Source: a virus
Direction: 5' to 3' (one strand)
Length of the DNA: 46,688 nucleotides
IMG/VR virus record: IMGVR_UViG_3300050821_006389
Location: 1 to 46,688 of that record
Positions 12,219 through 43,423 of the stretch are shown here, in pieces. The notes under the pieces were generated by a model. The model was not told where the DNA came from, did no database searches, and was given only the letters and a program-made list of their open reading frames with translations. Positions within the stretch are counted from its first letter, which is position 1. Each line of letters begins with the position of its first letter. The translations under genes were made by a program, and so were the position numbers.

Positions 12219-12229
12219 GGTGCGTTGCG
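12219..12229 (+). promoter_or_regulatory. GGTRCGTTGMG element, copy A
   Basis: GGTGCGTTGCG, 20 bases after the stop of the gene at 11993. No gene follows for about 680 bases, so this copy would lead into the non-coding region. Confidence 0.5.
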
Positions 12230-12581
12230 CCGCATGTTTTTGTGTGCCCCCAATCCCTTCACCCCGCTTGCACAGCGCGGGGTAAGTTAAGTGCAGCTGT
12301 GCCTAGCTGCCCACAGAAGCAGGCAATGTGGTCGCTGTAGCTCAACTACAAAACGGAGCAGGGAACCAGCACCACAAGCCCACACTAAGGACAGGGCCAG
12401 GATAGGCCCATGAGGCCCATGAACATCTCATCCAATCCACATGCCCCATAACAGCCAATAACAGCCAATCCAGCTCAGCACATATCTATCAAACACGTGC
12501 CAGAGATACTTAACTCGTTGATATTGCACGCTTTGCTGCGGATTGTGCCTGCAGCGGACAACACCAGGGACAACAAGGTAG

Positions 12582-12616
12582 CCCCAAAAAGACCCCCCTG
12601 CCCCCCGCCGGCCCCC
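12582..12616 (-). other. Putative G-quadruplex (minus strand)
   Basis: The plus strand has runs of 4, 6, 6 and 5 C separated by 7, 2 and 5 bases, so the minus strand can form a four-run G-quadruplex. It lies in the main non-coding region upstream of the late operon. Confidence 0.5.
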
Positions 12617-12743
12617 TAAAACAGCCGCTCACCGGAAATTCGACATCCCCCATTTCAACGCGATCTGATCTGTGGCATGTGTTGCATTTGCGTCACATCG
12701 TTGCATTTATATTACTACTTTACATAACGGCGTTATGCACATG

Positions 12744-12754
12744 GGTACGTTGAG
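12744..12754 (+). promoter_or_regulatory. GGTRCGTTGMG element, copy B
   Basis: GGTACGTTGAG, 8 bases after the palindrome ATAACGGCGTTAT. It lies 151 bases before the first late gene (12906). A candidate start point for the late packaging-gene transcript. Confidence 0.5.
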
Positions 12755-12905
12755 TGTGGCTGTGGTGTGGCGTAGGGAGTGCCTGTGAAGCTCGTTGCTC
12801 ATACCCGGCGGGTGTCCTGGGCCGTCCTCGCTCGCGGCCATATCGACCATCTAGACACTCCGTAAGCCGCCGAGGCGGGCCGGGAACTGATTTTGGAGGT
12901 ATCGG

Positions 12906-13205
12906 ATGCTGGCTCCTCGGGATCGCGTTACGGGGGTGCTGCTGGGTGCTGCGGACTATATTGAGCTGCATGGGTGGTGCCAGGGCACGTCGCAGATAGG
13001 TGATCGTGTTTGTGCTGCATGGGCGCTTACTATTGCAGCGGGCAACGATGTTTCAACTTCGGAGCAGGCCGGGCGCAGGCTGATGTGCTCTATGGGCATC
13101 CCTGCCGGCCATATAGGCAGGGTTCCGGACTGGAATGACGCCAGCGGCCGCACTCAGAAGGAGGTTGTCGAGGCGTTGCGGTCGGCGGCGTTTGCGGCGG
13201 CTTGA
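12906..13205 (+). CDS. DUF6197-like protein (99 aa)
   Basis: Preceded by TTTTGGAGG, a strong ribosome-binding site. Contains YIELHGWCQG and RVCAAWALTIAAG, the hallmark of a small family (DUF6197, as I recall) found in phages and bacteria without known function. It is the first gene of the late transcript, just before the putative anti-CBASS gene. Confidence 0.6.
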   Translation: MLAPRDRVTGVLLGAADYIELHGWCQGTSQIGDRVCAAWALTIAAGNDVSTSEQAGRRLMCSMGIPAGHIGRVPDWNDASGRTQKEVVEALRSAAFAAA

Positions 13206-13230
13206 GCATTTCAGTGATGGAGAGACACTG

Positions 13231-13458
13231 ATGACCTTTGGCGAAGATAGGGTTCGGGTGAAGTTCAATCCATCGGACAATTCGGTGGTGTCACAGATCA
13301 AACAGAAGACGGCCGAGCTGATCGACCTTTGTGATCAGCATGGAGGCCAGCACGGCAATGGCGAAGACCGCCGGCTGTGGGCCCTTGCCATGACCCACTA
13401 CGAGGATGCGGCGATGTGGGCGGTCAAAGCGGCTACGCAGTCAGGGCGGCTAAAATAA
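13231..13458 (+). CDS. Acb2/Tad1-domain protein, candidate anti-CBASS sponge
   Basis: 75 residues. KFNPSDNSVVSQIKQKTAELIDL (residues 11-33) and a second helix, ALAMTHYEDAAMWAVKAAT (51-69), match the two-helix Acb2 hairpin. Acb2 oligomers soak up cyclic di- and trinucleotides made by CBASS (and Thoeris-type) defences. The linker QHGGQHGNGED between helices is short, and length is near the family minimum. Ribosome-binding site GGAGA lies upstream. Nearby genes are packaging genes, so it would be made late unless it has its own promoter. Recognition is by remembered motif; the pocket residues were not mapped. Confidence 0.75.
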   Translation: MTFGEDRVRVKFNPSDNSVVSQIKQKTAELIDLCDQHGGQHGNGEDRRLWALAMTHYEDAAMWAVKAATQSGRLK

Positions 13459-13464
13459 TTTCAC

Positions 13465-13992
13465 GTGAAACCATCTGACGACCTGGACGGCTACGGGCCG
13501 GCGATGCGGGTGCTGACGCCGCAGCAGCGGCAATTTGTGCGGGAGTATATCGATCATCCGACTATTTCGCACGGTGCGGCGGCCAGGCGGGCGGGGTATT
13601 CCAGCCATTTGGGGGCGGACAGGGTTGCGGGGCATGTCAACCTGCGCAACGAGAAGGTTGTGCGGGCGATCAATGAGGAGATGGACAGGGCATTCCGGGC
13701 CGATGCGGCGCTGGCGCGGGATGCGGTGGTGGAGATCGTGCTCGACAAGGCTCATCCGGGGCGGCTCAAGGCGGCGGAAATGCTATTGAACCGCGGCGGG
13801 TTCCACACGATGAGCGAGCAGCGCATCAAGGTGGAGCATTCGGACATGACCGGGGAGGCGATGGTGGAGCGCATCAGGCACTTGGCGGTGACGCTTGGGG
13901 TCGACCCGGCGAAGCTTCTTGGGACGAATGTACCGGGCGGCGGCAATGATCCGAAGCTGATCGAGGCGGCGGTGGTCAAGGAGGAGGAATAG
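13465..13992 (+). CDS. terS: Terminase small subunit
   Basis: 175 residues. Begins (after a short leader) LTPQQRQFVREYIDHPTISH, then AARRAGYSS: the helix-turn-helix of phage small terminases that recognises the packaging start. The middle is helical (oligomerisation), and the C-terminal tail is acidic. The GTG start lacks a clear ribosome-binding site; ATG at 13504 is an alternative. The large subunit follows after five small genes, an unusually wide separation. Confidence 0.85.
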   Translation: MKPSDDLDGYGPAMRVLTPQQRQFVREYIDHPTISHGAAARRAGYSSHLGADRVAGHVNLRNEKVVRAINEEMDRAFRADAALARDAVVEIVLDKAHPGRLKAAEMLLNRGGFHTMSEQRIKVEHSDMTGEAMVERIRHLAVTLGVDPAKLLGTNVPGGGNDPKLIEAAVVKEEE

Positions 13993-14298
13993 ATGACGGC
14001 TAAGCGCGGAGCGAAGAAGGTGGTGAGGACGAAGAAGCCGAAGCGGGAGGGAATGGAGTGGGTTAAAATGAGGCTGTTGTCTCTATCCTCCCGGATCGGG
14101 ATGCTTGACCAGCAGGTCGGTTATTTCACGGCATTAGTAAATTCGCGTGCCCCGCCTGAGAAAGACACTTGCAGTATCAACGATTTGGCTTTGGGGCTCA
14201 GCGAGGTTCGAGGGCGTCTGGAATCTCTTGAGACAGGCGGTGTTTCATACAAGATCGGGCTGTTGCAAGCCGAGATTGATCGGCTAAGGAAAGGCTGA
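13993..14298 (+). CDS. Coiled-coil hypothetical protein (101 aa)
   Basis: A very basic N-terminus (RGAKKVVRTKKPKRE) is followed by two helical segments with heptads (about 24-50 and 67-99). It starts directly after the terS stop. May be a DNA-binding packaging accessory. No family recognised. Confidence 0.5.
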   Translation: MTAKRGAKKVVRTKKPKREGMEWVKMRLLSLSSRIGMLDQQVGYFTALVNSRAPPEKDTCSINDLALGLSEVRGRLESLETGGVSYKIGLLQAEIDRLRKG

Positions 14299-14508
14299 AT
14301 GACCGGCATTGTTGATGATTGGGTGAGCAGGCTGGGGAAGCGGATACCCCATCCGGAGGAAGTGTTTGCGTTGATCATCAAGGTGCAGGCTGCCGAGATC
14401 GGGCAGCTGCGGGCGGACAAGGCGGCAATTTCGCAGACGGCGAGCGATTATTTGCATGAGATCGGGCGGCTGCGGGCCGAGAACCTGGTCCTGGCGGTGA
14501 CCAGATGA
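14299..14508 (+). CDS. Small coiled-coil protein, MTGIV paralogue 1 (69 aa)
   Basis: Starts MTGIVDDWVSRLG and is mostly heptad-patterned helix (LIIKVQAAEIGQLRADKAAI). The first 17 bases of the gene are identical to those of the next gene, so the pair share a duplicated start region. No function recognised. Confidence 0.5.
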   Translation: MTGIVDDWVSRLGKRIPHPEEVFALIIKVQAAEIGQLRADKAAISQTASDYLHEIGRLRAENLVLAVTR

Positions 14509-14756
14509 CCGGCATTGTTGAGCAACTAGAGGAAAGGGCTGCTCGTGCTCAAACGCCGAAGAGCAGAGATTTTTATCGTTCGGTCAAGGCCGAGATCGAG
14601 CGGCTGCGGGCGGCACTTAAGGAATGTGCCAATGACCTGGAAAGTGAATTGAACGGTCATTATCAAGGTACGCTGGACTATCCAAGCCAGCAGTGCAAAT
14701 TCGAGCGGGACATGGAGCCTGTTGTTGCGGCTCGCAAATTGTTGGCTGCCGGATGA
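14505..14756 (+). CDS. Small coiled-coil protein, MTGIV paralogue 2 (83 aa)
   Basis: Starts MTGIVEQLEERAARAQTPK, has a helix IERLRAALKECANDLESELN, and resembles phage proteins often placed near the terminase. Overlaps its paralogue by 4 bases and the methyltransferase by 4 bases. No function recognised. Confidence 0.5.
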   Translation: MTGIVEQLEERAARAQTPKSRDFYRSVKAEIERLRAALKECANDLESELNGHYQGTLDYPSQQCKFERDMEPVVAARKLLAAG

Positions 14757-15520
14757 CCCCCTTTGTCGTTGCCTCGGTCATGGGTTCGGCCATGATCGTC
14801 AACCGGCTGGACTATGATCCGCAGAAGCCGCACCAGGGCGTCGGCATCGAGCTCCTGGAGCAGGGGCGGCGCGATCCGGCGCTCACCCTGCTGGTGTACA
14901 AGCTCGCGCTGGCGCGCCGGGGAAGCCGCGGTGACGGGGTGGTGATCATCGACGGCGGCGCCAACATCGGCAGCTACACGGTCGAGTGGGCGCGGTTCAT
15001 GCGCGGGTGGGGCGAGGTCATAGCCTTTGAGCCGCAGCGCTGGCCGTTTGCAGCACTGTGCGGCAACCTGGCGATCAACAACTGCTTCAATGTGACGTTT
15101 CGCAATGCAGCAATCGGGGAGCGCGCGGCCGAAGCAGTGGTCCCTTATTGGCGGCCGGATGAGCCGCACAATTTCGGCGCCCTGGCATTTGGGACCGCTG
15201 CCGATAGCCATTTATTGTGCGAAATGGTGGCAATCGACGACCTGACCCTGCCGCGGCTGGACATCCTTAAGCTTGATGTCGAGGGCATGGAGCCGCAGGC
15301 GATCAAGGGCGCATTCCACACGATCCACCGGTTGAAACCGGTCATCATCGCCGAGGCGCATATCTGCACGCCGGAGGCGATCTGCGGCCTGTTGCCGGAC
15401 TACGCTATCATCGGCATCGGCGCTGATGTGCTGTGCGTCCACAAGGACGAGGGCAACCCGGAACTGCAGCGGGACATCGAGAAGCTGGCCGAGCAGATGG
15501 GGGCCCGGCAGGTGCGATGA
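14753..15520 (+). CDS. FkbM-family SAM-dependent methyltransferase
   Basis: 255 residues. Motif I IDGGANIGS (66-74), FEPQ (92-95), and LKLDVEGMEP (171-180) are the FkbM methyltransferase signatures. The family mostly O-methylates sugars on glycans, lipopolysaccharide or secondary metabolites. The start overlaps the previous stop. Its placement between terS and terL is not a usual packaging function. With the glycosyltransferase at 25157, it suggests the phage modifies a glycan on its capsid or on the host surface. Confidence 0.8.
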   Translation: MTPFVVASVMGSAMIVNRLDYDPQKPHQGVGIELLEQGRRDPALTLLVYKLALARRGSRGDGVVIIDGGANIGSYTVEWARFMRGWGEVIAFEPQRWPFAALCGNLAINNCFNVTFRNAAIGERAAEAVVPYWRPDEPHNFGALAFGTAADSHLLCEMVAIDDLTLPRLDILKLDVEGMEPQAIKGAFHTIHRLKPVIIAEAHICTPEAICGLLPDYAIIGIGADVLCVHKDEGNPELQRDIEKLAEQMGARQVR

Positions 15521-15711
15521 GCATGAACAAAGATGAAGCGGCAATAAACCTGTTGCAGCAATTTATTCACGAGATGTTGCATCGTAAGCCATATCGGCGG
15601 AGCAAGCTTTATCGATTGGCGGCCGAGGCCGATCATCTACTGAACCGGGAGGCTCGGGAGGCCGCGGCCTACGAACGAAGAATGAAACTCGGGACATCGC
15701 GAGGCAGGTGA
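15517..15711 (+). CDS. Small basic hypothetical protein (64 aa)
   Basis: Starts MSMNKDEAAINLLQQFIHEML, overlaps the FkbM stop, and ends two bases before terL. Helical and basic. No family recognised. Confidence 0.5.
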   Translation: MSMNKDEAAINLLQQFIHEMLHRKPYRRSKLYRLAAEADHLLNREAREAAAYERRMKLGTSRGR

Positions 15712-15712
15712 G

Positions 15713-17188
15713 GTGACCGATCCCGAGGAACTGCGCCGCACGCTGGAGGCGCTGGAGGCGCTGAACGCCCGGCGGATTTTCGCGCGGTTCTACTATTTCG
15801 ATCCGCATCCGAAGCAGCGCGAGCATCTGGCAAAAGGCCGGCTCAAACGCGAGCGGCTGCTGATGGCCGGTAACCGGCAGGGCAAGACGGAAACGGGTGC
15901 CTTCGAGGCGGCCTGTCACCTGACCGGCGAATACCCGGCATGGTGGGAGGGCTACAAGTCTCTCAAGCCTACGATCGGTTGGGTGGCCGGGGAGACGAGC
16001 CTCGCCGTGCGCGATGTCTTGCAGAAGAAGCTGTGCGGTGATCCTGGCGTCGAGCCGGCATTCGGCAGCGGCATGATCCCGCGCGACCGCCTGGTGGACA
16101 AAACCTTAGCCCGTCACGGTGTCGCCGATGCCTTCGACACCATTCAGGTCAAGCACGCTTCCGGCGGCGTCTCGATCGCCCGGTTCAAGTCTTACGAGCA
16201 GGGCCGGCAGAAGTTCCAGGCCGAGGGCTTGGATTGGATGTGGTTCGACGAGGAACCGAAACTCGACATCTACTCGGAAGGCCTGGCCCGTATCGGCGAG
16301 CGCGACGGCCGCCTGTGGATGACGTTCACCCCGCTGCAGGGCCGCTCTGCCGTGGTCATGCGCTATCTCGACGAGCCGAGCGAGGACCGCGCCGTTACGG
16401 TCATGACGATCGACGATGCGCTCCATATCCGGCCGGAAGTCCGCGAGCGCATGATCGCCGGCTACCTGCCGCATGAGCGCGAGGCGCGCACGCGGGGGGT
16501 GCCGACGCTCGGCTCCGGCCGCATTTTCATGACCCCCGAGGAGGGGATCACCGAAGCGAGGATTACCGATGTGCCAGCCTACTGGAAGAAAATATGGGGC
16601 ATCGACATCGGCATCGGGCACCCTTTTGCCGCAGTGCTCCTTCTGTGGGACGCCGACGGTGACATTCTTCATGTCCATCACACAATTCGGATGGCAGACG
16701 CTTTGCCCATTCTGCACGCTTCGGCAATGCGACCCGTCGGCCTCCAAGTCCCCGTCGCCTGGCCCAAGGATGCCGGAGACCGCGACCGCGGCACCGGAGA
16801 ACCGATCTCCAAGCTCTACAAGGCACAAGGCTTGAAGATGCTCGACCAGCACGCCCACTGGCCGGACGGCCATGGCGGACACTCCATGTCGACCGAGGCC
16901 GGCCTGCTGGAGTGGGACGAGCGTGAGCGCACCGGCCGCCTTAAGGTTGCCAGCCACCTGAGCGACTGGCTGGAGGAGCGCCGGTTCTACCACCGCAAGG
17001 ATGGGCAGATCGTAAAAATCAAGGACGATCTGCTTTCAGCCACCCGTATCGGCATCATGATGAAGCGTTTCGCGCGCGCCGTGCAGCTCGGCGGCATGGC
17101 GGATGCGCAGCGCACCGGCCCCACGAGGCACTTTGCCAGGGGGTCGGCGAACCATCCCGACGGCGCTTACGACGTGTTTTCCGTTTAG
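15713..17188 (+). CDS. terL: Terminase large subunit
   Basis: 491 residues. Walker A GNRQGKT (53-59), Walker B with catalytic acid WMWFDEE (175-181), coupling motif near WMTFTPL (202-208), and an RNase H-like nuclease: GIDIG (Asp298) and KDD (437-439). This is the ATP-driven packaging motor and headful or site-specific nuclease. GTG start. All key motifs are intact and length is typical. The type fits podoviruses with T7-like heads but not T7's own terminase branch specifically. Confidence 0.93.
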   Translation: MTDPEELRRTLEALEALNARRIFARFYYFDPHPKQREHLAKGRLKRERLLMAGNRQGKTETGAFEAACHLTGEYPAWWEGYKSLKPTIGWVAGETSLAVRDVLQKKLCGDPGVEPAFGSGMIPRDRLVDKTLARHGVADAFDTIQVKHASGGVSIARFKSYEQGRQKFQAEGLDWMWFDEEPKLDIYSEGLARIGERDGRLWMTFTPLQGRSAVVMRYLDEPSEDRAVTVMTIDDALHIRPEVRERMIAGYLPHEREARTRGVPTLGSGRIFMTPEEGITEARITDVPAYWKKIWGIDIGIGHPFAAVLLLWDADGDILHVHHTIRMADALPILHASAMRPVGLQVPVAWPKDAGDRDRGTGEPISKLYKAQGLKMLDQHAHWPDGHGGHSMSTEAGLLEWDERERTGRLKVASHLSDWLEERRFYHRKDGQIVKIKDDLLSATRIGIMMKRFARAVQLGGMADAQRTGPTRHFARGSANHPDGAYDVFSV

Positions 17189-17409
17189 GCGTGCTTTGCA
17201 GCCTTGGCCTCGGCCTTGTCGGCGGCCCTGTTTTCTGCCGGCGTCATCCAGCGCTCGCCCGGGCCTAGCTTGTCATCCCCATTGCCGGCCGCGGTAGCCC
17301 TGACCTCGGCCTTGTTCAGCGCCGGCTTGGGCGGTGCCGCAATCAGGTCCGGCTTCGTCTTGGGTGCCGTTGTCATCTGGTCGTGGTCGCGTGGCATCTG
17401 AGAATTCAT
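17185..17409 (-). CDS. Antisense small protein, moron-like (74 aa)
   Basis: On the minus strand in an otherwise all-plus late region, with AAGGAG upstream of its ATG. Begins MNSQMPRDHDQMTT and ends KAEAKAAKHA. It is Lys/Ala-rich, low-complexity and probably disordered, with GPGERWMTPAENRA in the middle. It converges on terL, sharing a few stop-codon bases. A gene inserted against the grain between late genes is typical of a moron. No function recognised and no strong promoter seen. Confidence 0.55.
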   Translation of the reverse strand: MNSQMPRDHDQMTTAPKTKPDLIAAPPKPALNKAEVRATAAGNGDDKLGPGERWMTPAENRAADKAEAKAAKHA

Positions 17410-17458
17410 GGCCCGATCTCCTTCGGCCCCTCGCTAGGTCAACGCGGAACTTGCCCTA

Positions 17459-17600
17459 GAGGTCCAAGGACCTCGCGGTGCGTTGCGAGGCAATTCCGAA
17501 ACGTGATCCTGGACCGTGCGTCCCTCCTTGGGCGTTTCCTCCCGACTTGGGGGCGGGGCCCACACCCCCGTTCGGTCCCGCCCCTCCTTTGGAGCTTTGC
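17459..17600 (+). promoter_or_regulatory. Late leader with 16-bp palindrome and GC hairpin
   Basis: Perfect palindrome GAGGTCC-AA-GGACCTC (17459-17474), two bases before copy C of the late element. Further on, an 8-bp all-GC stem GGGGCGGG / CCCGCCCC (17550-17584) precedes the ribosome-binding site GGAG and ATG at 17601. The region separates terL and the antisense gene from the portal block. Confidence 0.6.
17477..17487 (+). promoter_or_regulatory. GGTRCGTTGMG element, copy C
   Basis: GGTGCGTTGCG. It is flanked by CCTCGC and GCGAGG, which can pair to place GGTGCGTT in a loop. It leads the portal-scaffold gene block after a 113-base leader. Confidence 0.55.
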
Positions 17601-17909
17601 ATGGTCACCAAGACTCAACAGGAAATGGACGAGATGCGCGAATTGATCCAGCGCGGGGAACTGCCGCCGGACGCCATCAAGAAATACTACGACGACGAAG
17701 CCAGGAACGTGTTCGGCTTCGACGCCAAGAAAACCCGCAAAGGCTACATCGAGCAGGGCTACGGCTCGGCACAGAACCAGACCCGCAACTCAATTGAAGC
17801 CTACAAGAAATATCACTCGGACGAGCCGGATTTCGCCGAACATCTCAAGCGCATGGAAGCTGAGCTTGTGGAGTCGAACGAGCGGCGGCGGGAGGCGATG
17901 CAGCAATGA
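17601..17909 (+). CDS. Small virion-region protein (102 aa)
   Basis: Starts MVTKTQQEMDEMRELIQRGE. Highly charged and helical with a Tyr/Lys-rich middle (KKYYDDEA, YKKYHSDEP). First gene of the portal block. Overlaps the next gene by 4. Possibly a minor head protein; not recognised. Confidence 0.5.
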   Translation: MVTKTQQEMDEMRELIQRGELPPDAIKKYYDDEARNVFGFDAKKTRKGYIEQGYGSAQNQTRNSIEAYKKYHSDEPDFAEHLKRMEAELVESNERRREAMQQ

Positions 17910-18190
17910 GCAACCGCGACACCTTCAACGCCAGCGTCAAGACCGCCGCCGTTGCCGCGCAGGCGACGGGCGTCACCAACGCGATCACGCAGCAGACCAC
18001 GATCAGCGCCAAGTGCGCCGATGTCGGCTACAACCTGCAGACCGGCAACTACGCCAATCTGGCGGCGGCTGTTGCCAATGCCAACAAGGCCGCCGTCGCC
18101 GCCGGCCTTCTCGCGGAAATGACCAAGCAGATGGCGATCCACGCGGCCAAGGACACGCTGCGCTCGACCGGTGATCTGGGGCCGGTCTGA
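17906..18190 (+). CDS. Small Ala-rich protein of head block (94 aa)
   Basis: Starts MSNRDTFNASVKTAAVAAQ and is rich in Ala, Thr and Asn, mostly helical. Overlaps the previous gene by ATGA-type junction. Possibly a head or internal protein. No family recognised. Confidence 0.5.
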   Translation: MSNRDTFNASVKTAAVAAQATGVTNAITQQTTISAKCADVGYNLQTGNYANLAAAVANANKAAVAAGLLAEMTKQMAIHAAKDTLRSTGDLGPV

Positions 18191-18191
18191 C

Positions 18192-18386: not shown

Positions 18387-18387
18387 C

Positions 18388-18489
18388 ATGGAACACCGCG
18401 CATTTTTTGCTTTGGATGTGGCTGCCGCTGCACTCATGGGCTCAGCGGCGATTCTGCTTCTCGTTTGTGCGCTCAAGCTCCTTTTTTGA
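18388..18489 (+). CDS. Single-span membrane mini-protein (33 aa)
   Basis: MEHRAFFALDVAAAAL then AAILLLVCALKLLF: a short N-terminal polar segment and one membrane helix. It starts one base after the previous stop. Membrane peptides in a head-gene block are unusual; no function recognised. Confidence 0.45.
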   Translation: MEHRAFFALDVAAAALMGSAAILLLVCALKLLF

Positions 18490-18500
18490 GAAACCCATAA

Positions 18501-22004: not shown

Positions 22005-22015
22005 GGTACGTTGAG
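22005..22015 (+). promoter_or_regulatory. GGTRCGTTGMG element, copy D
   Basis: GGTACGTTGAG, located 5 bases after the stop of the small membrane gene, and 208 bases before the capsid start. A GAGTC (a GANTC site, the target of CcrM and of GcrA-regulated promoters) overlaps its end at 22013-22017. Confidence 0.5.
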
Positions 22016-22223
22016 TCGAAATTCGGGGGCGTGTAAATCGCCGCTCCATTGAGACCCGAGTGTTGCCGGCGCCCCCCATTCGCCTAACGGCGGCAAGGAC
22101 AAGCACCGGCCGGGAGTAACGGCCCCTTCGCCGGGCAAGCCGTAAGCTATCCGACTCATCGACCCCGCGTCGCTGCGGACAAGTCGTCAGTCACGTTGCA
22201 ACCCTTTTGCAATGGGGCAGTCC
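22016..22223 (+). promoter_or_regulatory. Long GC-rich capsid leader
   Basis: About 208 untranslated bases with several possible GC stems and TTGCAA repeated 11 bases apart just upstream of the start. A GACTC lies near 22155. Nothing codes here on either strand that I can support. High-copy capsid mRNA leaders often carry stabilising stems; that is inference. Confidence 0.4.
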
Positions 22224-23165
22224 ATGACGACGACTCCGTATCCGACCGCGAACCTGGGTTTGTACCCGGACTTTACTGCGCAGTATTCGAGCAATCTTGA
22301 ATTGCTGCTGCAGCAGATGCAGTCCGTGTTGCGCGGCCACGTCACCGAACAGGGCGGCTTGGTCGGCAAGATGGCGAGCCCGGTCACGCAGTATTCCAGC
22401 GTGACGATGAAGGCTCCGCGCGGCCGGTTCTCCCCGATCGACCACACCAACCCCTACAGCATTCGGCCGTGGATGTTTCCGCAGCCCGGCGAGATCGCTG
22501 AGCTCATCGACTCGTTCGACAAGCTGCAGACCATCGTGGACCCGACCAGCGGCTACGTGAAGGCTGCTGCCGCGGCTACCGGCCGATATTGGGATGACGG
22601 CATTATCGCTGCCGCCACCGGCACCCGGCAGATCGGCACCGACATCGGCAGTCTGACGCCGGACACGTACTCGACGACCCTGTTCCAGGTAGCGTCGACC
22701 TTCGGCTCATCGGCGGCGTCGGGCCTGACCGTCGCCAAGCTGATCGAGGCGCGGCGTATCCTGCGCCACTTCCACAACGATCTGGACTCGGACCCGCCGA
22801 CCATTGTTATCGGCTCGCAGCAAGAGGCGGACCTGCTCAACCAGACACAGGTTGTATCGACCGAGTTCAACGACCGGCCGGTGCTGGTCGACGGCCGGCT
22901 GCGCCGGTTCCTCGGCTACGACATCGCCGTGTCCGAGCGGCTTTCGCAGTCTGCCAGCGTCCGCACCGCCATCGTGTTCGTGCGGTCGGGTATCACACTC
23001 GGGCTGTGGAAAGACATGGAGAACTACATCGACATCCGCGCTGATCTCAGCGGCCGGCCTTGGCAGTTGACCACGCAGACGATGTTCGGCCCGGTGCGCA
23101 CGCAGAACGGCAAGGTCGTGTCGATCCTCTGCAGCGACTCAACCGGCAACGACATCACCCCGTAA
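22224..23165 (+). CDS. Major capsid protein, HK97-fold-like
   Basis: 313 residues from MTTTPYPTANLGLYPDF. GGGG lies 6 bases upstream, whereas the ATG at 22212 has no ribosome-binding site. Follows the scaffold. RPWMFPQPGEIAELIDSFDKL and DGRLRRFLGYDIAVSERL match podovirus capsid proteins. It has balanced composition and no signal peptide. The main shell protein, expressed after a long leader and copy D of the late element. Confidence 0.85.
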   Translation: MTTTPYPTANLGLYPDFTAQYSSNLELLLQQMQSVLRGHVTEQGGLVGKMASPVTQYSSVTMKAPRGRFSPIDHTNPYSIRPWMFPQPGEIAELIDSFDKLQTIVDPTSGYVKAAAAATGRYWDDGIIAAATGTRQIGTDIGSLTPDTYSTTLFQVASTFGSSAASGLTVAKLIEARRILRHFHNDLDSDPPTIVIGSQQEADLLNQTQVVSTEFNDRPVLVDGRLRRFLGYDIAVSERLSQSASVRTAIVFVRSGITLGLWKDMENYIDIRADLSGRPWQLTTQTMFGPVRTQNGKVVSILCSDSTGNDITP

Positions 23166-25156: not shown

Positions 25157-26521
25157 GTGCAGCCAGCCAGATACCTTTTTGAGACGGCAATAACCGTGCT
25201 CCGCAATGGCAGGCGCGAGGAAGCCTGTGAAATTCTGACCGAAGTGCTGCGGCTCGATCCCCGCATTGCCGATGCCTGGGCAGTGCGCGGGCGCCTCGAA
25301 GCCGACTGCGGCCGCTCCTTCAATGCCATGCTGCACCACGGCTTTGCCATCCAGCTGGCGTCCGGGCGGCACGACCTGTGGTGCAACCGCGGCATCGATG
25401 CCATGGGCGCCCGCATGTACAAGGAAAGCGCCGAGAGTTTCGAGCGCTCGCTGGCGATCGAGCCGACCTTCGAGGCTCATTACAATTATGGCAACCTCCT
25501 CTCCGCGCTGATGAAGGTGCCGGAAGCCATCGAGCATTTCGAGGCGGCGGAGAAGATCGGCGGTGTGGACAACCCGCAGATTTATGCCAACCTCGGGGTT
25601 GTCCTGATCGCCGAGGGCCGCTGGAAAGACGGCTTCAACCGCTACCGGCATAGATTCAATGCGCCCGGTTTTCCGACGCGGCCAACCTTGAACTATCCGA
25701 TCTGGCGCGGCGAGCCGTTGGTCGGCAAGACGATCCTGCTCTATACCGAGCAGGGCTTCGGCGATGAGATCATGTCTTATCGGTTCGCGTGGCCGATGAA
25801 GCAGCAGCGCAGAGCCCGCGTGATCGTATCCGTTCGGCCGCCGATGTACCGGCTAGCCCGCGAAAGCCTCGGCTTCGCCGATGCGGTGATCCTGCAGTAC
25901 GATGAACCGCCGTGGAAGCCGGACTATATGGCTGCGCTCCTCGACGTGCCGGCCTTCGTCGACATCGATCCGGCGGAGATCCCGCTTGGCGACAATTACC
26001 TCATGGCCAAGCACACCGGCGTCAATCTCAAGTGGCCGGAGGGGCTCAAAGTCGGCCTCTGCTGGGCTTCCGGCAAGCGCGACCTGCAGCCGTCGGTCGC
26101 CGATGTGGCGAAGCAAAAGAGCCTGACCTTCAAGCACCTTGCCCCGCTGGCGCGGCCCGGCGTGACGCTTGTGTGCCTGCAGCAGACCCACAATGACAAG
26201 GAAGCTTTGGCCGAGCTCGGGGTCAAAGACCCGATGCCGGGAGTGACCGACTTCGCCGACACGGCCTGGTGGATCAGTCAGCTCGACCTGGTGATCACCG
26301 TCGATACGGCCGTTGCCCATCTGGCCGGCGCCATGGGCGTGCCGGTGTGGAACCTGGTGCGCTTCGATGCGCTGTGGCCATGGGGCAAGGCGACCTCTGA
26401 CACACCCTGGTACGACAGCATGACCATCTTCCGCCAGCCGAAGCCGTTCGACTGGGGCACGCCGCTCAAGGCGCTTTTCGCGGAGTTCGAGCACCTGGTC
26501 GAGAAGCGCAAGGCCGCCTAG
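25157..26521 (+). CDS. TPR-glycosyltransferase (GT9/GT41-like)
   Basis: 454 residues. Tetratricopeptide repeats cover about residues 1-165. A glycosyltransferase domain follows, with EQGFGDEI (198-205), VGLCWASGKRD and ITVDTAVAHLAGAMG near 380, similar to heptosyltransferase GT9 and TPR-linked enzymes. GTG start without a clear ribosome-binding site. It probably transfers sugar to protein or to lipopolysaccharide. In the middle of virion genes, glycosylation of a phage structural or secreted protein, or of the host surface, is plausible. Enzyme family likely; substrate unknown. Confidence 0.75.
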   Translation: MQPARYLFETAITVLRNGRREEACEILTEVLRLDPRIADAWAVRGRLEADCGRSFNAMLHHGFAIQLASGRHDLWCNRGIDAMGARMYKESAESFERSLAIEPTFEAHYNYGNLLSALMKVPEAIEHFEAAEKIGGVDNPQIYANLGVVLIAEGRWKDGFNRYRHRFNAPGFPTRPTLNYPIWRGEPLVGKTILLYTEQGFGDEIMSYRFAWPMKQQRRARVIVSVRPPMYRLARESLGFADAVILQYDEPPWKPDYMAALLDVPAFVDIDPAEIPLGDNYLMAKHTGVNLKWPEGLKVGLCWASGKRDLQPSVADVAKQKSLTFKHLAPLARPGVTLVCLQQTHNDKEALAELGVKDPMPGVTDFADTAWWISQLDLVITVDTAVAHLAGAMGVPVWNLVRFDALWPWGKATSDTPWYDSMTIFRQPKPFDWGTPLKALFAEFEHLVEKRKAA

Positions 26522-26525: not shown

Positions 26526-26536
26526 GGTGCGTTGCG
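26526..26536 (+). promoter_or_regulatory. GGTRCGTTGMG element, copy E
   Basis: GGTGCGTTGCG, 5 bases after the glycosyltransferase stop. Ten bases later a CCTCC/GGGGG-type hairpin with a CTAAT-containing loop runs up to the ATG of the next gene. This leader parallels that of copy F. Confidence 0.6.
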
Positions 26537-26565
26537 CGGCCCGTGACCTCCACTAATGGGGGGGC

Positions 26566-27297
26566 ATGAGGCGCCCAATGCTTGTCACCACCACTAGCGA
26601 CTACATCCCCGGCGGTCCTTTTTGGGCGCGGCAGGACATATTCGGCTCAGGTGGGGCCCAATCGATTACTTATGATCCGACAAATTTTCCGGCCAATACG
26701 AGGTTGCGTTGGAACTGGCCCGCGCCGAATGGCAGAGTTTACAGCTATCCGGGTTTGGCGTGGGGCAATCAATATTCCGGCGTGGAAGTCATCCCCGGCG
26801 TGCAACTCAATGCCTTCAAGACACTTTCTTGCAAGTTCGACTACTCCATTTCCGCCAATCCCGCGCAGTACGACGTGCTGAATGAAATGTGGCTCTATGC
26901 TCATCCCCTCCTGCATCAGGCGCCGCCGCCGTCGCCGGCTCAGTTGTTCGAGGTTGAATTGCTGTTGGAGCCGCTGGCCGACGGTTCGGTACCGAGTCAG
27001 AATCAATTTTATGTCTACAGCATCACGCAACCGTTCGCAGCCGACGTGCTGGTCAATCCCAAGGCCAATTTCACCCCGGCGGGAACGACCAGTCAATACA
27101 TCCCGTCAATCCTGATCTACCCGAAGAAGGCGTTGATCGGCAAAGTGACGGTCGATTGGCGGGCGCTTTATCAGCAGTTGATCGCCAAGGGCACGCTGAC
27201 CGGGAACGAATATGCATATGGCTTTGAATTTGGTGCGGAAGTGTGGGGCGGATCGGGTTCGATGAACATCAGATCGTGGCAAGTCGACTGGAGCTAG
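26566..27297 (+). CDS. GH12-like beta-jelly-roll protein (possible glucanase)
   Basis: 243 residues. YSYPGLAWGNQY (59-70), NEMWLYAH (106-113, Glu107) and GFEFGAEVWGGSG (219-231) resemble in order the substrate-cleft and the two catalytic Glu regions of GH12 endoglucanases. If active it would cut beta-1,4-glucan-type host polysaccharide. No signal peptide. Preceded by GGGGGG. An alternative is a non-catalytic lectin on the same fold. Confidence 0.5.
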   Translation: MRRPMLVTTTSDYIPGGPFWARQDIFGSGGAQSITYDPTNFPANTRLRWNWPAPNGRVYSYPGLAWGNQYSGVEVIPGVQLNAFKTLSCKFDYSISANPAQYDVLNEMWLYAHPLLHQAPPPSPAQLFEVELLLEPLADGSVPSQNQFYVYSITQPFAADVLVNPKANFTPAGTTSQYIPSILIYPKKALIGKVTVDWRALYQQLIAKGTLTGNEYAYGFEFGAEVWGGSGSMNIRSWQVDWS

Positions 27298-37225: not shown

Positions 37226-37229
37226 ACAA

Positions 37230-38966
37230 ATGCCGCAGATCAAAGAATATACCGCCGAGGAAGACAAGCTGCGCCCGACCGAAACGGGCGTCGAGGCATT
37301 TGCGCAAGCCGGCCGGCGCATCGGCGCGTTCTACAATCAAGCCGCGGAGGCAATCACTCGCACCGCACAGGACAAGGCGCGTGCGGCAGAAACCCTCGCC
37401 GGGGCCGAGAAAGCGAAGTTCGGTGCCTTCGGCCGCAGTGCCGAGGCTTTGGGCGGTGCGCTCGATGCGGCTGTCGATCTGCGGGCACATCAGGAAATCT
37501 CGCAGGGCTCGGCGAACTTCGCCCAGGCGGCGAACGACATCACCGAGCAATGGAACGATACGGTCAAGAATGCGGACCCGAACGCCAATCAGGCTTTGCA
37601 ACCGGGGTTCTTCGAGCAGAAGTTCGAGCCGTGGGCGGAAAAGTATGTCCAGGGGTTTCAGACCAATAGCGGCCGGGACTACGCGCGCAAGCAGGTCGAT
37701 AATCTAAGACATCATCTATACGAGAAAACGACGGCCGACACTGCGACGCTCGCGGGCGATGCGGTGCAGGTCAACCTGACCAAGATGTCGTCCAATCTGA
37801 CCAATGCGGCGCGCAGCGACCCGACCGGCCACAATGTCGACTTCCTGCTCAAGAGTGCCGAAGATGGTATCAACGGTATTGTCGAGTCATCACCGGGCTT
37901 GAAGGGTGCCGCTGCAGCCAAGGCCAAGACGGAATATCTCTACAAGGTCAAGCGCGACATCGTTCAGGGCGCCGCCTTGGGTGCGATCGAGAATGCGGCC
38001 GATCCTAATGCTGCAGCAGCGGGGATTGTCGGCAAATATCCAGATTACATCAATGCGCACGAAATTGATCAGCTTCAAAAGTCGGCACAGTATTATAGGC
38101 ACTTGAATGATCAGCAGGAAAAGAGCGATCGTGCGGAAAGAGATCACAACAATCGCATTGACTTTAATACCAAGGTCGAGACGCTGATGGGAACCACAAT
38201 TCCGAACAAGCCGGGGGATGCTCCGAATATGCCGGCCGAGTTTTGGGACCAAGTTAGGGAGCTTACAAAACATCCCGGTGCGGGGCTTGAGCCTGGCCGC
38301 ATTCACACATTGATTTCTTATGGCGAAGCGGTCACAGCCCGGCGCGGCAAGACGGAGCCGTCCGAAGGGGTTTCGCACGAAACCTCGATGCAGCTCATGT
38401 CCGACATTCATGCCGGCAAGGTGACCGATGCTAACCCGCTGTATCAGGCATACGGCGCCGGCCAACTGCGCAACAGCGACTTTAATTTCCTGCGCAATGA
38501 ACTCGCACAACATAACACCCCGGATGGAAGGCAGTTGGATTATTTCAAGAAAGAACTCACTCAAAAAGTGCAAAAGATCCTGATGCGTTTCAATATGCCC
38601 GGCGATGCCGATCGCATGTATCGCTGGCAGTACGAGCTCAAGACGCGCATGGACAAACTGCAGCAGCAGGGCAAGGACCGGATGGCTGTGTTTGATCCGA
38701 ACTCGCCGGAATACATGGGCTCTGATGCTGCGCTGCAGTCGTTCAAGTCGCCGATCGCGCAGCGAATACAAGGCGCGGGCGGCATCGGTGCGCCATTGCC
38801 GGCGACGGTAAGTCCGGCGGTCTCGGCGCCCAAAGTGCCAACGTTGCCACCCAAGGACAAGCTGGTGGTCGGCCAGACCTACGAGACCTCCGGCGGCCCT
38901 GGCACTTGGACCGGAACCGGCTTCAAGCTTGTGAAGCCGGCGGCATTGAAGCCTGGGGAAATGTAA
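37230..38966 (+). CDS. Internal virion protein C-like (gp15-like)
   Basis: 578 residues, long helical Ala/Lys/Glu-rich protein; starts MPQIKEYTAEEDKLRPTETG, a usual opening for this family. The C-terminal ~60 residues are Pro-rich with GQTYETSGGPG. In T7, gp15 forms the periplasmic part of the DNA-ejection conduit. Placement between gp14- and gp16-like genes supports the call. Confidence 0.72.
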   Translation: MPQIKEYTAEEDKLRPTETGVEAFAQAGRRIGAFYNQAAEAITRTAQDKARAAETLAGAEKAKFGAFGRSAEALGGALDAAVDLRAHQEISQGSANFAQAANDITEQWNDTVKNADPNANQALQPGFFEQKFEPWAEKYVQGFQTNSGRDYARKQVDNLRHHLYEKTTADTATLAGDAVQVNLTKMSSNLTNAARSDPTGHNVDFLLKSAEDGINGIVESSPGLKGAAAAKAKTEYLYKVKRDIVQGAALGAIENAADPNAAAAGIVGKYPDYINAHEIDQLQKSAQYYRHLNDQQEKSDRAERDHNNRIDFNTKVETLMGTTIPNKPGDAPNMPAEFWDQVRELTKHPGAGLEPGRIHTLISYGEAVTARRGKTEPSEGVSHETSMQLMSDIHAGKVTDANPLYQAYGAGQLRNSDFNFLRNELAQHNTPDGRQLDYFKKELTQKVQKILMRFNMPGDADRMYRWQYELKTRMDKLQQQGKDRMAVFDPNSPEYMGSDAALQSFKSPIAQRIQGAGGIGAPLPATVSPAVSAPKVPTLPPKDKLVVGQTYETSGGPGTWTGTGFKLVKPAALKPGEM

Positions 38967-41900
38967 GTGGCCGACGATTTGAGCTATGAGGAGGCGGCGC
39001 CGCAGTCGGGCGAGTTGAGTTACGAGCAGGCCGCCCAACCCGGAGAGCTCAGCTACGAGCAGGCATCGCAGCCGCCAAAGCGTGTGGGCGGGCTGATCCA
39101 CGCGCCGGGTGAACTGGCAGAAACCGTTCCGCAATTCTTCAACCTCCTCGGCACCCCGGAAGGCCGTGCTGCACTCTGGCGCGGGACCAAGCAAGAATTG
39201 GAAAACCTGGTCGCGCCATTCAAAGTCTATGGCGAGGCCGCGGCTGGCAAGCCGATCACACCGGAGCAGGAGATCGAGGGCGGGATAGCTGGTGCGATGC
39301 TCACCATGGGCACCGGCACCAAGTTCCCGTTCGCCAAGAAAATCGTGCCGATCCTGCAGGAGTTTAACGATACGGTGATGTCGAGCGCAGCAGTGCGCCT
39401 CGATGCGTTTGCGCGCACCGGCAGTTCTGACGGTGTGAAGCTTGAGCCGCCGATCGCGGGCACGGTGCCGGAGCCGCCGATCAAGCCGCCGGCAGGCGCG
39501 CCGGAACCGGAAATCAAGGTTCCGTCCTACATTCCGCCGCATTTGAGGGAGGAGTGGATAAAGCATAAGCGCCAAGTTCTTGAGTATGCGAAGCCTCGCT
39601 CGGACAATATTGCGCCGTTGCGCCGCTCGGAGGCCGCGCAAACCGGCGATCCCCTCATCGACATGGTAATCAATCATCCGCTGACGCAGACGGTCATTGA
39701 TCGTCCAATTGTTGATCGCTCACATACCATTCCTTATATGGCTGGCGGCTCGGCCCCGCTGGCTAATCCTACGATCTATGTCGAAAAGAGCGTACCAAAA
39801 ACACAGACCGTCAACGGCATCACTTTCGATCCTGCCGACCCATGGATTGTTCATGAGAACGTCGAGCAGACGGTCATGGAGATACTGATCGAGAACGGCA
39901 TGGCGCCGGAGCAGGCCTACCGCACGGCACATTTCGGTTGGGCCGAGCCGGCAGAGCAGGCATGGTATCGCGCGCACGGCATTGACCAGGAAGCCGCTGA
40001 GGCCGAGCAAGCAAAGTGGCTGCCGCGCATTCAGCACGAAAATGCGACCGACATTCCGGCCGATCTCTACGACAAGCCGTATCCCGGCTCGCAGCCTGGC
40101 CGCGCACACGATGAGGCGATAGCCGAGGCGCAGCCAACGCCGGAGGAAATGGCGCGGGCGCGGGACATCATCCGCAATGCGCCGGAACTGCAGCCGCGTA
40201 GTGCCGAGCCGGTGCTGCAGCAGGCCAGGAGCCTCGGGGTGATCGGGCCGGAGAAGGATTTGCCGGTGGACGAGAAGCCGGCCACGGCTGCGCAGCGCGC
40301 CATCCCGGCATCGCGCCGGCCGGACGACAAGATCACCATGACACCGGCCGGCGAGCCGATCGGCGCATGGGAAGCGCGGTTCAAGGATTGGGTGTCGCGC
40401 GTCAAAGAGCCGGAGGATGTCAAGCCGTTCATTGAACGAGCAGCAGAGGAAAACAACAATTTCCCGGAGGCGCGCGCCGGCAGTGTTCCACCGGAGCATG
40501 TCGAGGTTGTTGCCAAGGCGGCCGGCATCAATGCTGCAAAGATCGACGTTGCGGAGTTGTCGGCAAAATTCAACACGCCTGACAAAATCAGGATGGTCAA
40601 GCAAGCGCTTGATGTGGCGTTGCAGGACTTCAAGGCGGCCAAGGGCCTGGTCGAGGATGACCCGTCGATTGAGAACATCGGTAAGATGCTCGAAGCGGAA
40701 GTGCGGCGCGATTACGTGCTGGAATATACGGTCGGGTTGCGTGCCGAGTGGGGCAGGACAGGACACGCGCTGCGCGACCTGCTGGAAGCCGGCAAAGGGC
40801 CTTCGTCTGGATTAGCAGAGGATTTCAAGACGCAGGCCCCGAAAGAAGTCACCGACGTTGTTCATGCGGCGCGTGAATTTGCCGACAAGGCGGCGCGCGC
40901 TGCCAAGCCGAAGGCGCCTGGCGAGAAAACACCGGCCACAGAGGAGGAAGGGCCGCTCGGATTGATGCAGCTGATCAAGACTGCCGAGGATTTGGTCGAA
41001 GCCCACAAATCAAAGACCCCCGGTGAAAAAACACCAGAAGTATCTCCCGAGGTTAAGGAGTTGATCAAGACCTCGGAGGCTGTCGTCAATCTGATGCGCC
41101 GCCCGCAAGCAGGCGAGCCTCCCGCCTTGAGTGTCCGGCCGCTCCGGCAACTTCATGAGGAAGGCAAGGAAGCTGCTCCACGAAGCCCGCTGGCAAGTTT
41201 CAATGCGCTTATTTCCGAGGCGGAGCGAAATGTCACCGCCGGCGTGAAGGCGGGCAAAGAGCCGAAGGCGGCAATGCCGCAAGAGCTCCGCGACATGGTT
41301 GGGGCTGCAGAAAATCTCACCAAGTTTTTGGACAAGGCAAGGCTTATCAATGAATTGCTGGCGAGCAAGGGCCGCACGCCGAAAGACATGGCGGATTTTG
41401 CTCGTGCTACGCGCGGGCTTGACGATGAGGGTATGGCGCGGGCGTTGACCAACATGCGCGGCAAGGGGCCGGGCTGGCTGCATTGGGCTGTGTCGCAAGC
41501 GCTGATCTCCGGCGTCATTACCCATACGTTCTACACCGGCACCAACCTGATGTTCATGGAATTGGAGCGTGTCGTCGCTCCAACCATAGCTGCTATGTTT
41601 GACAGGATTCGCGGCAATCCCGATCCGGTCCTTTTCGGAGAAATCGGCGCTGCTCAGCGCGCGATCATCAGCAGCATCCCGCAAGCGTTCCAGGCTTCCA
41701 AGCAGGCATTCAAGACTGGATTGCGTGTGCCGCTGCCGCGTGAGCTCGAACTATTGGCGAAAGAGGCTGCGGGGCCGAAGGCGGCAGAAAAGGCGATGGT
41801 GCCGTATACTACCGGACAGACGGTTGATTGGGGCATCATGCGCCGGATCGCGAGCGATGAGACGCTGGCGAAGGTCGAGCGCTATGGCGGGCTGCCTGGC

Positions 41901-43253
41901 CGGAGCGCGAACTTCCAGCACACGTTTTTCAAGAACTTGAGCTTTCACGCCAGCATGGATTCACAAGCTTACCGCATGGCGGCAAAGGAAGGTCTCGATC
42001 CGAAGTCACAAGAGTTCGCCACCCGGCAGGCTTTCTTGAAAGCCAATCCGACCGACGCGATGATCGAGAAGGGAGTACAGGACGGTTATTCCGGCACCTT
42101 CATGGAACAGCTCGGCGAGAAAACCGCGGCGTTCTCGCGGATGGTGAGAGATACGCCACTGCAGTGGGTGTTCTTTTTCACGCATATTCCGATGAACATT
42201 GCCCGCGCCGGTGTCCGCTATACGGCTCCTTATCTCGGCAAGGAAATGCGCGCGGATATGCTGGGCGAGAACGGCATGTCCAAGCAGAATCTTGCTTATG
42301 CCAAGTGGACGCTTGGCAGTAGCCTCATGGGTTATGCTGTTTACAAAGGGCTGATGGATGAGGCGAACGGCTCCTATCCGAGCGATCCCGATGAGAAGCG
42401 GCGCTGGCAAATGGAAGGCCGGCCAACCAACTCGATCAAGGCTTTCGATCAGTGGTGGTCGCTCGAACGGTTGGGCCCGCCTGGAATTGCATTCAAGCTT
42501 GGCGCCGATCTCGGCTACATCATCCGGTCCTGGGATCACCAGGACAAGAGCATGGGTGAGAACATCACCAATGCTGCGGGGCATCTAGCGATTGCGTTTG
42601 CAAACGCCTATTCGACAGAGGCGGGGTTCCAGGGTGTGGCGAACCTGATGGATTTGCTTCAAGGCAAGCGGACGCCCGCGGAATGGGGTGCCTATCAAGG
42701 GGCGTCGTTCGCGCAGCCCGTTTCGATGCTGAGCCAGGCTGCGAGCTTCACCGATCCGCACATGCGGGAAGCACGGACGCTGATTGAAGGCATCATGATG
42801 CGACTGCCGGGCCTGCGCCAGAAGTTGGAACCAAAGCTTGACCCGGTGTTCGGAACTCCGATGCCCAATCCCGGCTATCATTCGATCGAGCGGCACGCGC
42901 CGGTGACGGCCGATCCGATCAAGCTCGAAATGGAGCACGCCGGCTATTTCCCGGCCAAGCCATCCAACCATGTCGGCGGAGTGAAGTTGACGCCGGAGCT
43001 TTATCACCGCTATCAGGCGACCGCGGGACCGCTAGCCCATGAAATCCTAGGTGAAATGATCCAGCAGCCGGAGTGGGAAACTCTGCCGGCGGGATTGAAG
43101 AAGCAGCAGTTGCAAAAAGGACTTGAAATAGCCCGCAAGGCCGCTAGGGATGCACTACAGGCCGAGAACCCCGAGCTTGTTATGCAGGGTATGAAGAACA
43201 AGCTTGAGCGGGCCGGCCTCGAGGAGGAGCCGGTAGGCTTTACCGGGCGCTAA
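38967..43253 (+). CDS. Large internal virion protein (gp16-like)
   Basis: 1428 residues; GTG start two bases after the previous stop region. N-terminal triple repeat of (E)LSYEQA(A/S)QP (about 4-34). Long linkers rich in Pro, Glu and Ala; helical body; hydrophobic stretches around residues 830-870 that could insert in the inner membrane. No transglycosylase motif recognised, unlike T7 gp16. Likely ejected into the host cell to complete the DNA-delivery channel. Confidence 0.75.
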   Translation: MADDLSYEEAAPQSGELSYEQAAQPGELSYEQASQPPKRVGGLIHAPGELAETVPQFFNLLGTPEGRAALWRGTKQELENLVAPFKVYGEAAAGKPITPEQEIEGGIAGAMLTMGTGTKFPFAKKIVPILQEFNDTVMSSAAVRLDAFARTGSSDGVKLEPPIAGTVPEPPIKPPAGAPEPEIKVPSYIPPHLREEWIKHKRQVLEYAKPRSDNIAPLRRSEAAQTGDPLIDMVINHPLTQTVIDRPIVDRSHTIPYMAGGSAPLANPTIYVEKSVPKTQTVNGITFDPADPWIVHENVEQTVMEILIENGMAPEQAYRTAHFGWAEPAEQAWYRAHGIDQEAAEAEQAKWLPRIQHENATDIPADLYDKPYPGSQPGRAHDEAIAEAQPTPEEMARARDIIRNAPELQPRSAEPVLQQARSLGVIGPEKDLPVDEKPATAAQRAIPASRRPDDKITMTPAGEPIGAWEARFKDWVSRVKEPEDVKPFIERAAEENNNFPEARAGSVPPEHVEVVAKAAGINAAKIDVAELSAKFNTPDKIRMVKQALDVALQDFKAAKGLVEDDPSIENIGKMLEAEVRRDYVLEYTVGLRAEWGRTGHALRDLLEAGKGPSSGLAEDFKTQAPKEVTDVVHAAREFADKAARAAKPKAPGEKTPATEEEGPLGLMQLIKTAEDLVEAHKSKTPGEKTPEVSPEVKELIKTSEAVVNLMRRPQAGEPPALSVRPLRQLHEEGKEAAPRSPLASFNALISEAERNVTAGVKAGKEPKAAMPQELRDMVGAAENLTKFLDKARLINELLASKGRTPKDMADFARATRGLDDEGMARALTNMRGKGPGWLHWAVSQALISGVITHTFYTGTNLMFMELERVVAPTIAAMFDRIRGNPDPVLFGEIGAAQRAIISSIPQAFQASKQAFKTGLRVPLPRELELLAKEAAGPKAAEKAMVPYTTGQTVDWGIMRRIASDETLAKVERYGGLPGRSANFQHTFFKNLSFHASMDSQAYRMAAKEGLDPKSQEFATRQAFLKANPTDAMIEKGVQDGYSGTFMEQLGEKTAAFSRMVRDTPLQWVFFFTHIPMNIARAGVRYTAPYLGKEMRADMLGENGMSKQNLAYAKWTLGSSLMGYAVYKGLMDEANGSYPSDPDEKRRWQMEGRPTNSIKAFDQWWSLERLGPPGIAFKLGADLGYIIRSWDHQDKSMGENITNAAGHLAIAFANAYSTEAGFQGVANLMDLLQGKRTPAEWGAYQGASFAQPVSMLSQAASFTDPHMREARTLIEGIMMRLPGLRQKLEPKLDPVFGTPMPNPGYHSIERHAPVTADPIKLEMEHAGYFPAKPSNHVGGVKLTPELYHRYQATAGPLAHEILGEMIQQPEWETLPAGLKKQQLQKGLEIARKAARDALQAENPELVMQGMKNKLERAGLEEEPVGFTGR

Positions 43254-43254
43254 A

Positions 43255-43404
43255 ATGGCCATTATTTTCGCCGTCGGCTTCCATATAGTTACTGGCCTCG
43301 GCGTGGCTGGTCTCGTCTACGGCATCATCTCCCCAATAGCCGGCGAGTCCTGGGGATTGATTGCCGGGGCCGGCATATTTGCCGTTTGGCTCACGCAGAC
43401 GTAG
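43255..43404 (+). CDS. Two-span small membrane protein (49 aa)
   Basis: MAIIFAVGFHIVTGLGVAGL and GLIAGAGIFAVWL form two helices separated by a short polar turn. Starts one base after the ejection protein stop. A holin-like candidate separate from the one at 1311. Confidence 0.55.
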   Translation: MAIIFAVGFHIVTGLGVAGLVYGIISPIAGESWGLIAGAGIFAVWLTQT

Positions 43405-43412
43405 GCACTCCC

Positions 43413-43423
43413 GGTGCGTTGCG
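43413..43423 (+). promoter_or_regulatory. GGTRCGTTGMG element, copy F
   Basis: GGTGCGTTGCG, 9 bases after the small membrane gene stop. Nine bases later GCCGCC / GGCGGC (43433-43438, 43447-43452) make a hairpin, loop GCTATTAG, that ends exactly at the ATG of the secreted fibre gene. Confidence 0.6.

What the first reader, a model, noticed from the sequence alone, without database searches (positions are those of the whole stretch)
12219..43423. An 11-bp element GGTRCGTTGMG occurs six times, only between genes and only on the plus strand
Copies at 12219, 12744, 17477, 22005, 26526 and 43413. Those at 12744, 17477, 22005, 26526 and 43413 stand before the packaging, portal, capsid, GH12-like and fibre genes. 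Two alleles alternate (GCGTTGCG and ACGTTGAG). Such placement suggests a phage-specific late promoter, activator site (GcrA is a candidate partner) or RNA processing site. By eye I found no copy inside genes.
Basis: seen in the sequence. Interest (0 to 1): 0.75.

Follow-up and report, generated by a model that had tools for sequence, protein, structure and literature searches.

The report
Late-gene promoter of uncultivated phages
The repeated 11-letter element is the upstream half of a phage-specific promoter that switches on the virus's structural genes, shared by dozens of uncultivated relatives, probably read by a small phage DNA-binding protein found only in genomes that carry it, and often placed so that the messenger RNA starts directly at the gene's ATG.

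Summary
In detail: six exact copies, all on the + strand, all intergenic, against 0.18 expected. The 8-bp core GTRCGTTG recurs in relatives: 136 + versus 9 - strand sites. About 20 nt downstream lies a second block, (C/T)ATNTT, giving a -35/-10 layout with 16-18 bp spacing. Relatives lacking the element often have TTGACA-N17-TATAAT-like promoters at the same place before the capsid gene. In 64 of 136 sites an ATG lies at +38..43 from the core (9 expected), almost never with a Shine-Dalgarno (3/58 versus 144/282): predicted leaderless late mRNAs. Element alleles are homogeneous within each genome over about 15 bp. An uncharacterised HTH protein (window 9059-9526) is in 11 of 12 long element-bearing genomes and none of 16 without it; all five contigs found by that protein alone carry the element. 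GcrA does not track it and GANTC is not enriched. Best reading: an activator-dependent sigma70-type late promoter. Transcript starts and protein binding are untested; the window's own -10s are weak.

The parts
12219..12229 (+). element copy 1 (GGTGCGTTGCG), first site after the candidate activator gene, followed by ~500 nt without a called gene
12744..12754 (+). element copy 2 (GGTACGTTGAG); possible -10 TAGGGA at 12773-12778 (spacer 17, weak)
17477..17487 (+). element copy 3 (GGTGCGTTGCG); possible -10 GATCCT at 17505-17510
22005..22015 (+). element copy 4 (GGTACGTTGAG), ~200 nt before the major capsid gene; possible -10 TAAATC at 22034-22039 (spacer 17)
26526..26536 (+). element copy 5 (GGTGCGTTGCG); ATG at +39 from the core (26566): predicted leaderless start; possible -10 TAATGG at 26554-26559
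43413..43423 (+). element copy 6 (GGTGCGTTGCG); ATG at +39 from the core (43453): predicted leaderless start of a 697-aa protein; possible -10 TATTAG at 43441-43446 (spacer 16), flanked by an inverted repeat GCCGCC/GGCGGC
9059..9526 (+). candidate activator gene (155 aa, predicted XRE-type HTH plus basic C-terminal helix), upstream of the late region
22212..23165 (+). major capsid gene, downstream of copy 4 with ~165 nt inferred leader
26566..27297 (+). gene with ATG at the inferred transcript start (copy 5)
43453..45546 (+). gene with ATG at the inferred transcript start (copy 6)
6664..7149 (+). GcrA homologue (PF07750, E 2e-25): considered as partner, not supported

Best explanation
The 11-mer is the -35-region recognition element of the phage's late promoters. 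A sigma70-type host RNA polymerase uses a degenerate -10 hexamer 16-18 bp downstream of a -35 hexamer that begins with the TTG of the core; a phage-encoded HTH protein (window 9059-9526), encoded upstream of the late region, binds the ~15-bp element overlapping the -35 and recruits polymerase, much as lambda CI or T4 MotA do. Transcription then starts ~40 nt downstream of the core; for about half of the sites that is the ATG itself, so those late mRNAs are leaderless, while the capsid and other operons get a leader of up to ~200 nt. Shown here by comparison: element, strand, spacing, second block, ATG position, lack of Shine-Dalgarno, co-occurrence with the HTH gene. Inferred: that transcription starts there, that the HTH protein binds the element, and that the timing is late.
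For: Six copies versus 0.18 expected; in relatives 100 intergenic + versus 5 intergenic - strand copies and 136 versus 9 after adding whole contigs. Second block found independently in leadered (log-likelihood 106 versus 27-45 shuffled) and leaderless (141 versus 28-36) sites at the same offset; spacer mainly 16-18. ATG at +38..43 in 64/136 (9 expected), 58 with at least 60 open codons; Shine-Dalgarno 3/58 versus 144/282, p 4e-12. At the homologous place before the capsid gene, relatives without the element often carry TTGACA-N15..18-TATCTT-like promoters (exact TTGACA within 330 bp in 33 of 51 non-element capsid rows). Within-genome allele homogeneity confined to positions -3 to +11 (z up to 11). 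HTH gene in 16 of 44 records, every one element-bearing (G048 by the variant GGTGTGTTG); the only family clearly separating element from non-element genomes in an all-ORF comparison (12/13 versus 0/3); five new contigs found by that protein alone all carry the element. AlphaFold model pLDDT 89 with an HTH like HipB, ClgR and C-proteins (best E only 0.02).
Against: No transcript, binding or expression data exist. In the window itself the -10 hexamers are weak: none of the six scores significantly above random with the family matrix. Element-bearing genomes lie on one side of a single branch in the portal tree, so the link with the HTH gene could rest on one ancestral event, though in the capsid tree they are interleaved with TTGACA-type lineages. 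One element-bearing 34.7-kb contig (G025) lacks the HTH gene, though it may be incomplete. The correlation between individual -10 position and ATG position is weak. The HTH assignment rests on fold matches with E above 0.001.
Confidence: 0.76

Rival explanations
1. The same late promoter, but the factor reading the element is not the 9059-9526 protein: another phage protein (for example a sigma appropriator or a small undetected ORF) or a host alternative sigma factor recognises GGTGCGTTG directly.
For: No binding evidence for the HTH protein; the -35 core is unusually long (9-15 bp), as for a dedicated sigma or phage factor; G025 has seven copies but no detected HTH gene.
Against: The HTH family is the only one found to track the element and predicts it in new contigs; genome-specific alleles argue for a phage-encoded, co-evolving reader rather than a host sigma; TTG and 17-bp spacing point to sigma70.
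Confidence: 0.17
2. GcrA-type regulation: the phage's own GcrA homologue (6664-7149) activates these sites on methylated DNA.
Against: GcrA is not found in long element-bearing contigs G001, G006, G010, G019, G023, G024, G025 and is present in element-free G031-G033; GANTC not enriched, in one of six window sites only.
Confidence: 0.03
3. An RNA-level signal: a nut/put-like antitermination site, processing site or non-Shine-Dalgarno translation signal, working in the transcript.
For: Strand-specific, often ~40 nt before ATGs, and inverted repeats flank the second block in a subset (12/136 with at least 6 bp versus 2.75 expected).
Against: No fixed-register base-pair covariation; the same two blocks occur at sites 60-200+ nt from any start codon; TTGACA promoters occupy the equivalent position in relatives; no Rfam match in the window.
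Confidence: 0.04

Closest known systems
T4 middle promoters (MotA box + sigma70 -10, AsiA/MotA sigma appropriation; PMC7403470)
   Same: Phage-encoded activator element takes the place of the -35; host sigma70 -10 kept
   Different: Core GGTGCGTTG keeps the TTG of the -35 and is unrelated to the MotA box; candidate activator has no detected MotA relationship; no AsiA identified (not specifically searched)
lambda CI at PRM and restriction-modification C-proteins (XRE-type class II activators; own knowledge)
   Same: Predicted XRE-like HTH fold (HipB, ClgR, C.BclI, C.Esp1396I among matches); site at the -35 edge
   Different: Asymmetric ~15-bp site, not a palindromic operator; many dispersed sites driving structural genes; no sequence family match
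lambda Q-type late regulators encoded just before the late promoter (own knowledge)
   Same: Candidate regulator gene usually lies just upstream of the first late promoter
   Different: Q is an antiterminator acting at one promoter; here many dispersed promoters and no antitermination evidence
HTVC010P-type Pelagibacter podoviruses (PMC10504331)
   Same: Related capsid (~38% identity) and portal; PMC10504331 reports no phage RNA polymerase for Skadi-1
   Different: That paper reports sigma70 promoters; whether these phages have the element or its HTH protein was not tested here
Leaderless mRNAs of Caulobacter (PMC4117421)
   Same: Start codon at the transcript 5' end; 375 (9.6% of CDSs) in this alphaproteobacterium
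   Different: Here it concerns phage late genes under one promoter class, and is predicted, not measured

Membership tests
sigma70-type promoter | two blocks with ~17 bp between -35 and -10 hexamers | tested here: met
   spacers 16/17/18 in 39 of 43 well-scored leaderless sites
sigma70-type promoter | -35 TTGACA | tested here: not met
   only TTG conserved; ACA replaced, GGTGCG added upstream
sigma70-type promoter | -10 with A2 and T6 conserved | tested here: met
   A 0.97, T 0.74 family-wide; weak in the window's own six sites
Activator-dependent (class II) phage late promoter | dedicated activator binds at the -35 region | not testable with these tools
   only co-occurrence, gene position and fold
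GcrA/CcrM promoter | GANTC near the promoter and GcrA present | tested here: not met
   10/136 versus 8.9% random; GcrA distribution unlinked
T4 MotA-type activator | membership of the MotA protein family | tested here: not met
   no Pfam, NCBIfam or PHROG match naming MotA
Leaderless mRNA | start codon at the 5' end, no Shine-Dalgarno | tested here: inconclusive
   position and lack of SD met; 5' ends not measured
Single-subunit phage RNA polymerase promoter (T7-like) | phage-encoded RNA polymerase | tested here: inconclusive
   no RNA polymerase hit among the window ORFs scanned; not all ORFs were scanned and the record may be incomplete

The most novel reading that the evidence does not exclude
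A previously undescribed family of phage late activators (XRE-like HTH with a basic C-terminal helix) that re-targets host RNA polymerase to a ~15-bp -35-overlapping element, co-evolves with it genome by genome, and systematically produces leaderless late mRNAs; the capsid-gene promoter type follows the genome's regulator rather than the capsid lineage.
Probability: 0.6. Interest if true: 0.7.

Novelty: new variant of a known kind. Interest (0 to 1): 0.62.

Why it matters
It gives a regulatory code, readable from sequence, for a group of uncultivated phages with no close cultured relative: late operons, true start codons (many leaderless and easily mis-called) and the likely late regulator. 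The element varies from genome to genome together with its presumed reader, a ready natural experiment on activator-site co-evolution, and the system is small enough to test in a reporter strain.

Tried and rejected
Fixed-register RNA base pairing downstream of the core: no covariation. GcrA/GANTC: not linked. Rfam: nothing at gathering threshold, one sub-threshold hit taken as chance. Near DNA neighbours among sequenced phages: none. Candidate activator by Pfam, PHROGs, NCBIfam and PDB sequence: no informative match. Alphaproteobacterial genomes with the activator profile: matches almost all cover only the C-terminal basic motif. Host search by capsid: one distant Rhodospirillaceae locus (36%), so the host stays unproven. 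Activator search in viral contigs with the window protein or a loose alignment found nothing; other family members found more. Literature search for the string GGTGCGTTG showed no relevant paper in the ten listed.

Full report
Observation. An exact two-strand scan finds GGTRCGTTGMG six times, all on the + strand, at the stated coordinates; shuffles give 0.18 on average. Near matches are at chance level. All six are intergenic. The record is a 46.7-kb linear IMG/VR virus contig carrying a portal of phrog_332, a major head protein, a terminase and a GcrA homologue. It has no near DNA relative among sequenced phages; the closest annotated relatives by capsid and portal are an uncultured podovirus from a spring and, more distantly, the HTVC010P-type Pelagibacter podoviruses.

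The element is a family trait. Portal, capsid and terminase searches brought in over 100 related contigs. The 8-mer core GTRCGTTG is in most portal relatives, nearly always on the coding strand; with whole contigs added there are 136 non-redundant + and 9 - sites. Flanking letters are genome-specific: all seven copies in G025 read GTACGTTGCTGT, G006 mostly GTGCGTTGTT, G010 GTGCGTTGAG, and G048 uses GGTGTGTTG. Within-genome agreement clearly exceeds shuffled labels at positions -3 to +11 of the core (z up to 11) and not in the neighbouring sequence, apart from one weak column in the -10. That defines a ~15-bp site read by something that differs between genomes, hence probably phage-encoded (inference).

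It has promoter anatomy. EM over the whole downstream stretch finds a second block, AtntTC, with its A 28-30 nt after the first base of the core; it is recovered independently in sites with and without a nearby ATG, far above shuffles. Counting the core's TTG as the start of a -35 hexamer, the spacer is 16-18 bp, and the conserved A and T are the two most important -10 positions of sigma70 promoters (general knowledge). Homologous contigs without the element often carry TTGACA-N15..18-TATCTT-like promoters at the same place before the capsid gene. In the capsid tree, element-bearing and TTGACA-type lineages are interleaved, whereas in the portal tree of 16 genomes the element-bearing ones lie on one side of a single branch: promoter type follows the genome, not the capsid gene.

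Leaderless genes. In 64 of 136 sites an ATG lies at +38..43 from the core (about 9 expected), 58 opening at least 60 codons. It is 12-13 nt after the first base of the -10 in 33 of 43 well-scored sites, where transcription would begin. These genes almost never have a Shine-Dalgarno sequence (3/58 versus 144/282 other long genes). Two window genes, 26566-27297 and 43453-45546, are of this class. Leaderless mRNAs are common in Caulobacter (375, PMC4117421).

Candidate activator. Clustering of proteins from 16 long contigs gives one family that tracks the element: window 9059-9526 and homologues. A profile finds it in 16 of 44 records. Of records of at least 34 kb it is in 11 of 12 with the element (exception G025) and in none of 16 without; Fisher p about 1e-6 (run with 15 instead of 16), not corrected for shared ancestry. 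As a prospective test, activator homologues were used to find contigs: five not seen before (L182-L186) all carry intergenic + copies, each with an ATG at +40/41 next to at least one copy. In several genomes the gene lies directly before the first element copy (in the window 2.7 kb before). No library names the family. An AlphaFold model has mean pLDDT 89; its N-terminal ~70 residues match HipB, ClgR and restriction C-proteins, target TM-scores up to 0.8, though the best E-value is 0.02.

GcrA. The proposed partner is not found in many element-bearing contigs and is present in several without the element; GANTC, the methylation site that directs much of GcrA binding (PMC3667746), is not enriched.

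Limits. Nothing here measures transcription or binding. The window's own -10s are weak by the family matrix, which may mean stronger dependence on the activator or loose placement. Gene calls come from a simple script. Contigs are of unknown completeness and the host is unproven; GcrA homologues and one distant Rhodospirillaceae locus only hint at Alphaproteobacteria.

Verdict. A real, family-wide late promoter element (my probability about 0.9), most likely activator-dependent and read by the 9059-9526 family (about 0.75), with widespread leaderless late genes (about 0.85). Known kind (phage activator replacing or extending the -35), new element and new candidate activator family.

Noticed in passing
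window 43432-43452; relatives e.g. L105:5453, L111:2335, G024 23481: Inverted repeats of 6-9 bp with site-specific arm sequences flank the -10 hexamer, which sits in the loop (12 of 136 sites with at least 6 bp versus 2.75 when arms are swapped between sites, z 7). Function unknown; the right arm would reach the transcript start.
   Followed up: partly
window 12229-12744; L182:2141-2754, L183:1147-1765, L104:856-1448, L019:1251-1919: The first late site is followed in several genomes by ~500-1200 nt without a clear gene, with GC-rich inverted repeats about 40-60 nt downstream; L017, L182 and L183 (L019 in part) share CGACCGAGGACCACGACGAAGGCGAATAGCCGAGGACGTA. Possible noncoding RNA or packaging region before the small terminase; no Rfam match in the window.
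   Followed up: partly
L182:2070-2077, L183:1076-1083, L104:785-792: A minus-strand copy ~70 bp left of the first + copy, with its own ATG at about +40, suggests a divergent promoter pair between the activator gene and the late region.
   Followed up: no
window 6664-8093: Phage GcrA homologue overlapping a C5-type DNA methyltransferase gene; GcrA occurs in about a fifth of the 44 relatives searched, independent of the late element.
   Followed up: partly
G048 (L160-L162): A relative whose element has shifted to GGTGTGTTG at its late sites, with a divergent activator homologue: a natural pair for testing altered specificity.
   Followed up: partly
window 25710-25789: ARAGORN reports an odd tRNA-??? 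with a 4-base anticodon inside the 25157-26521 gene; probably a false positive.
   Followed up: no
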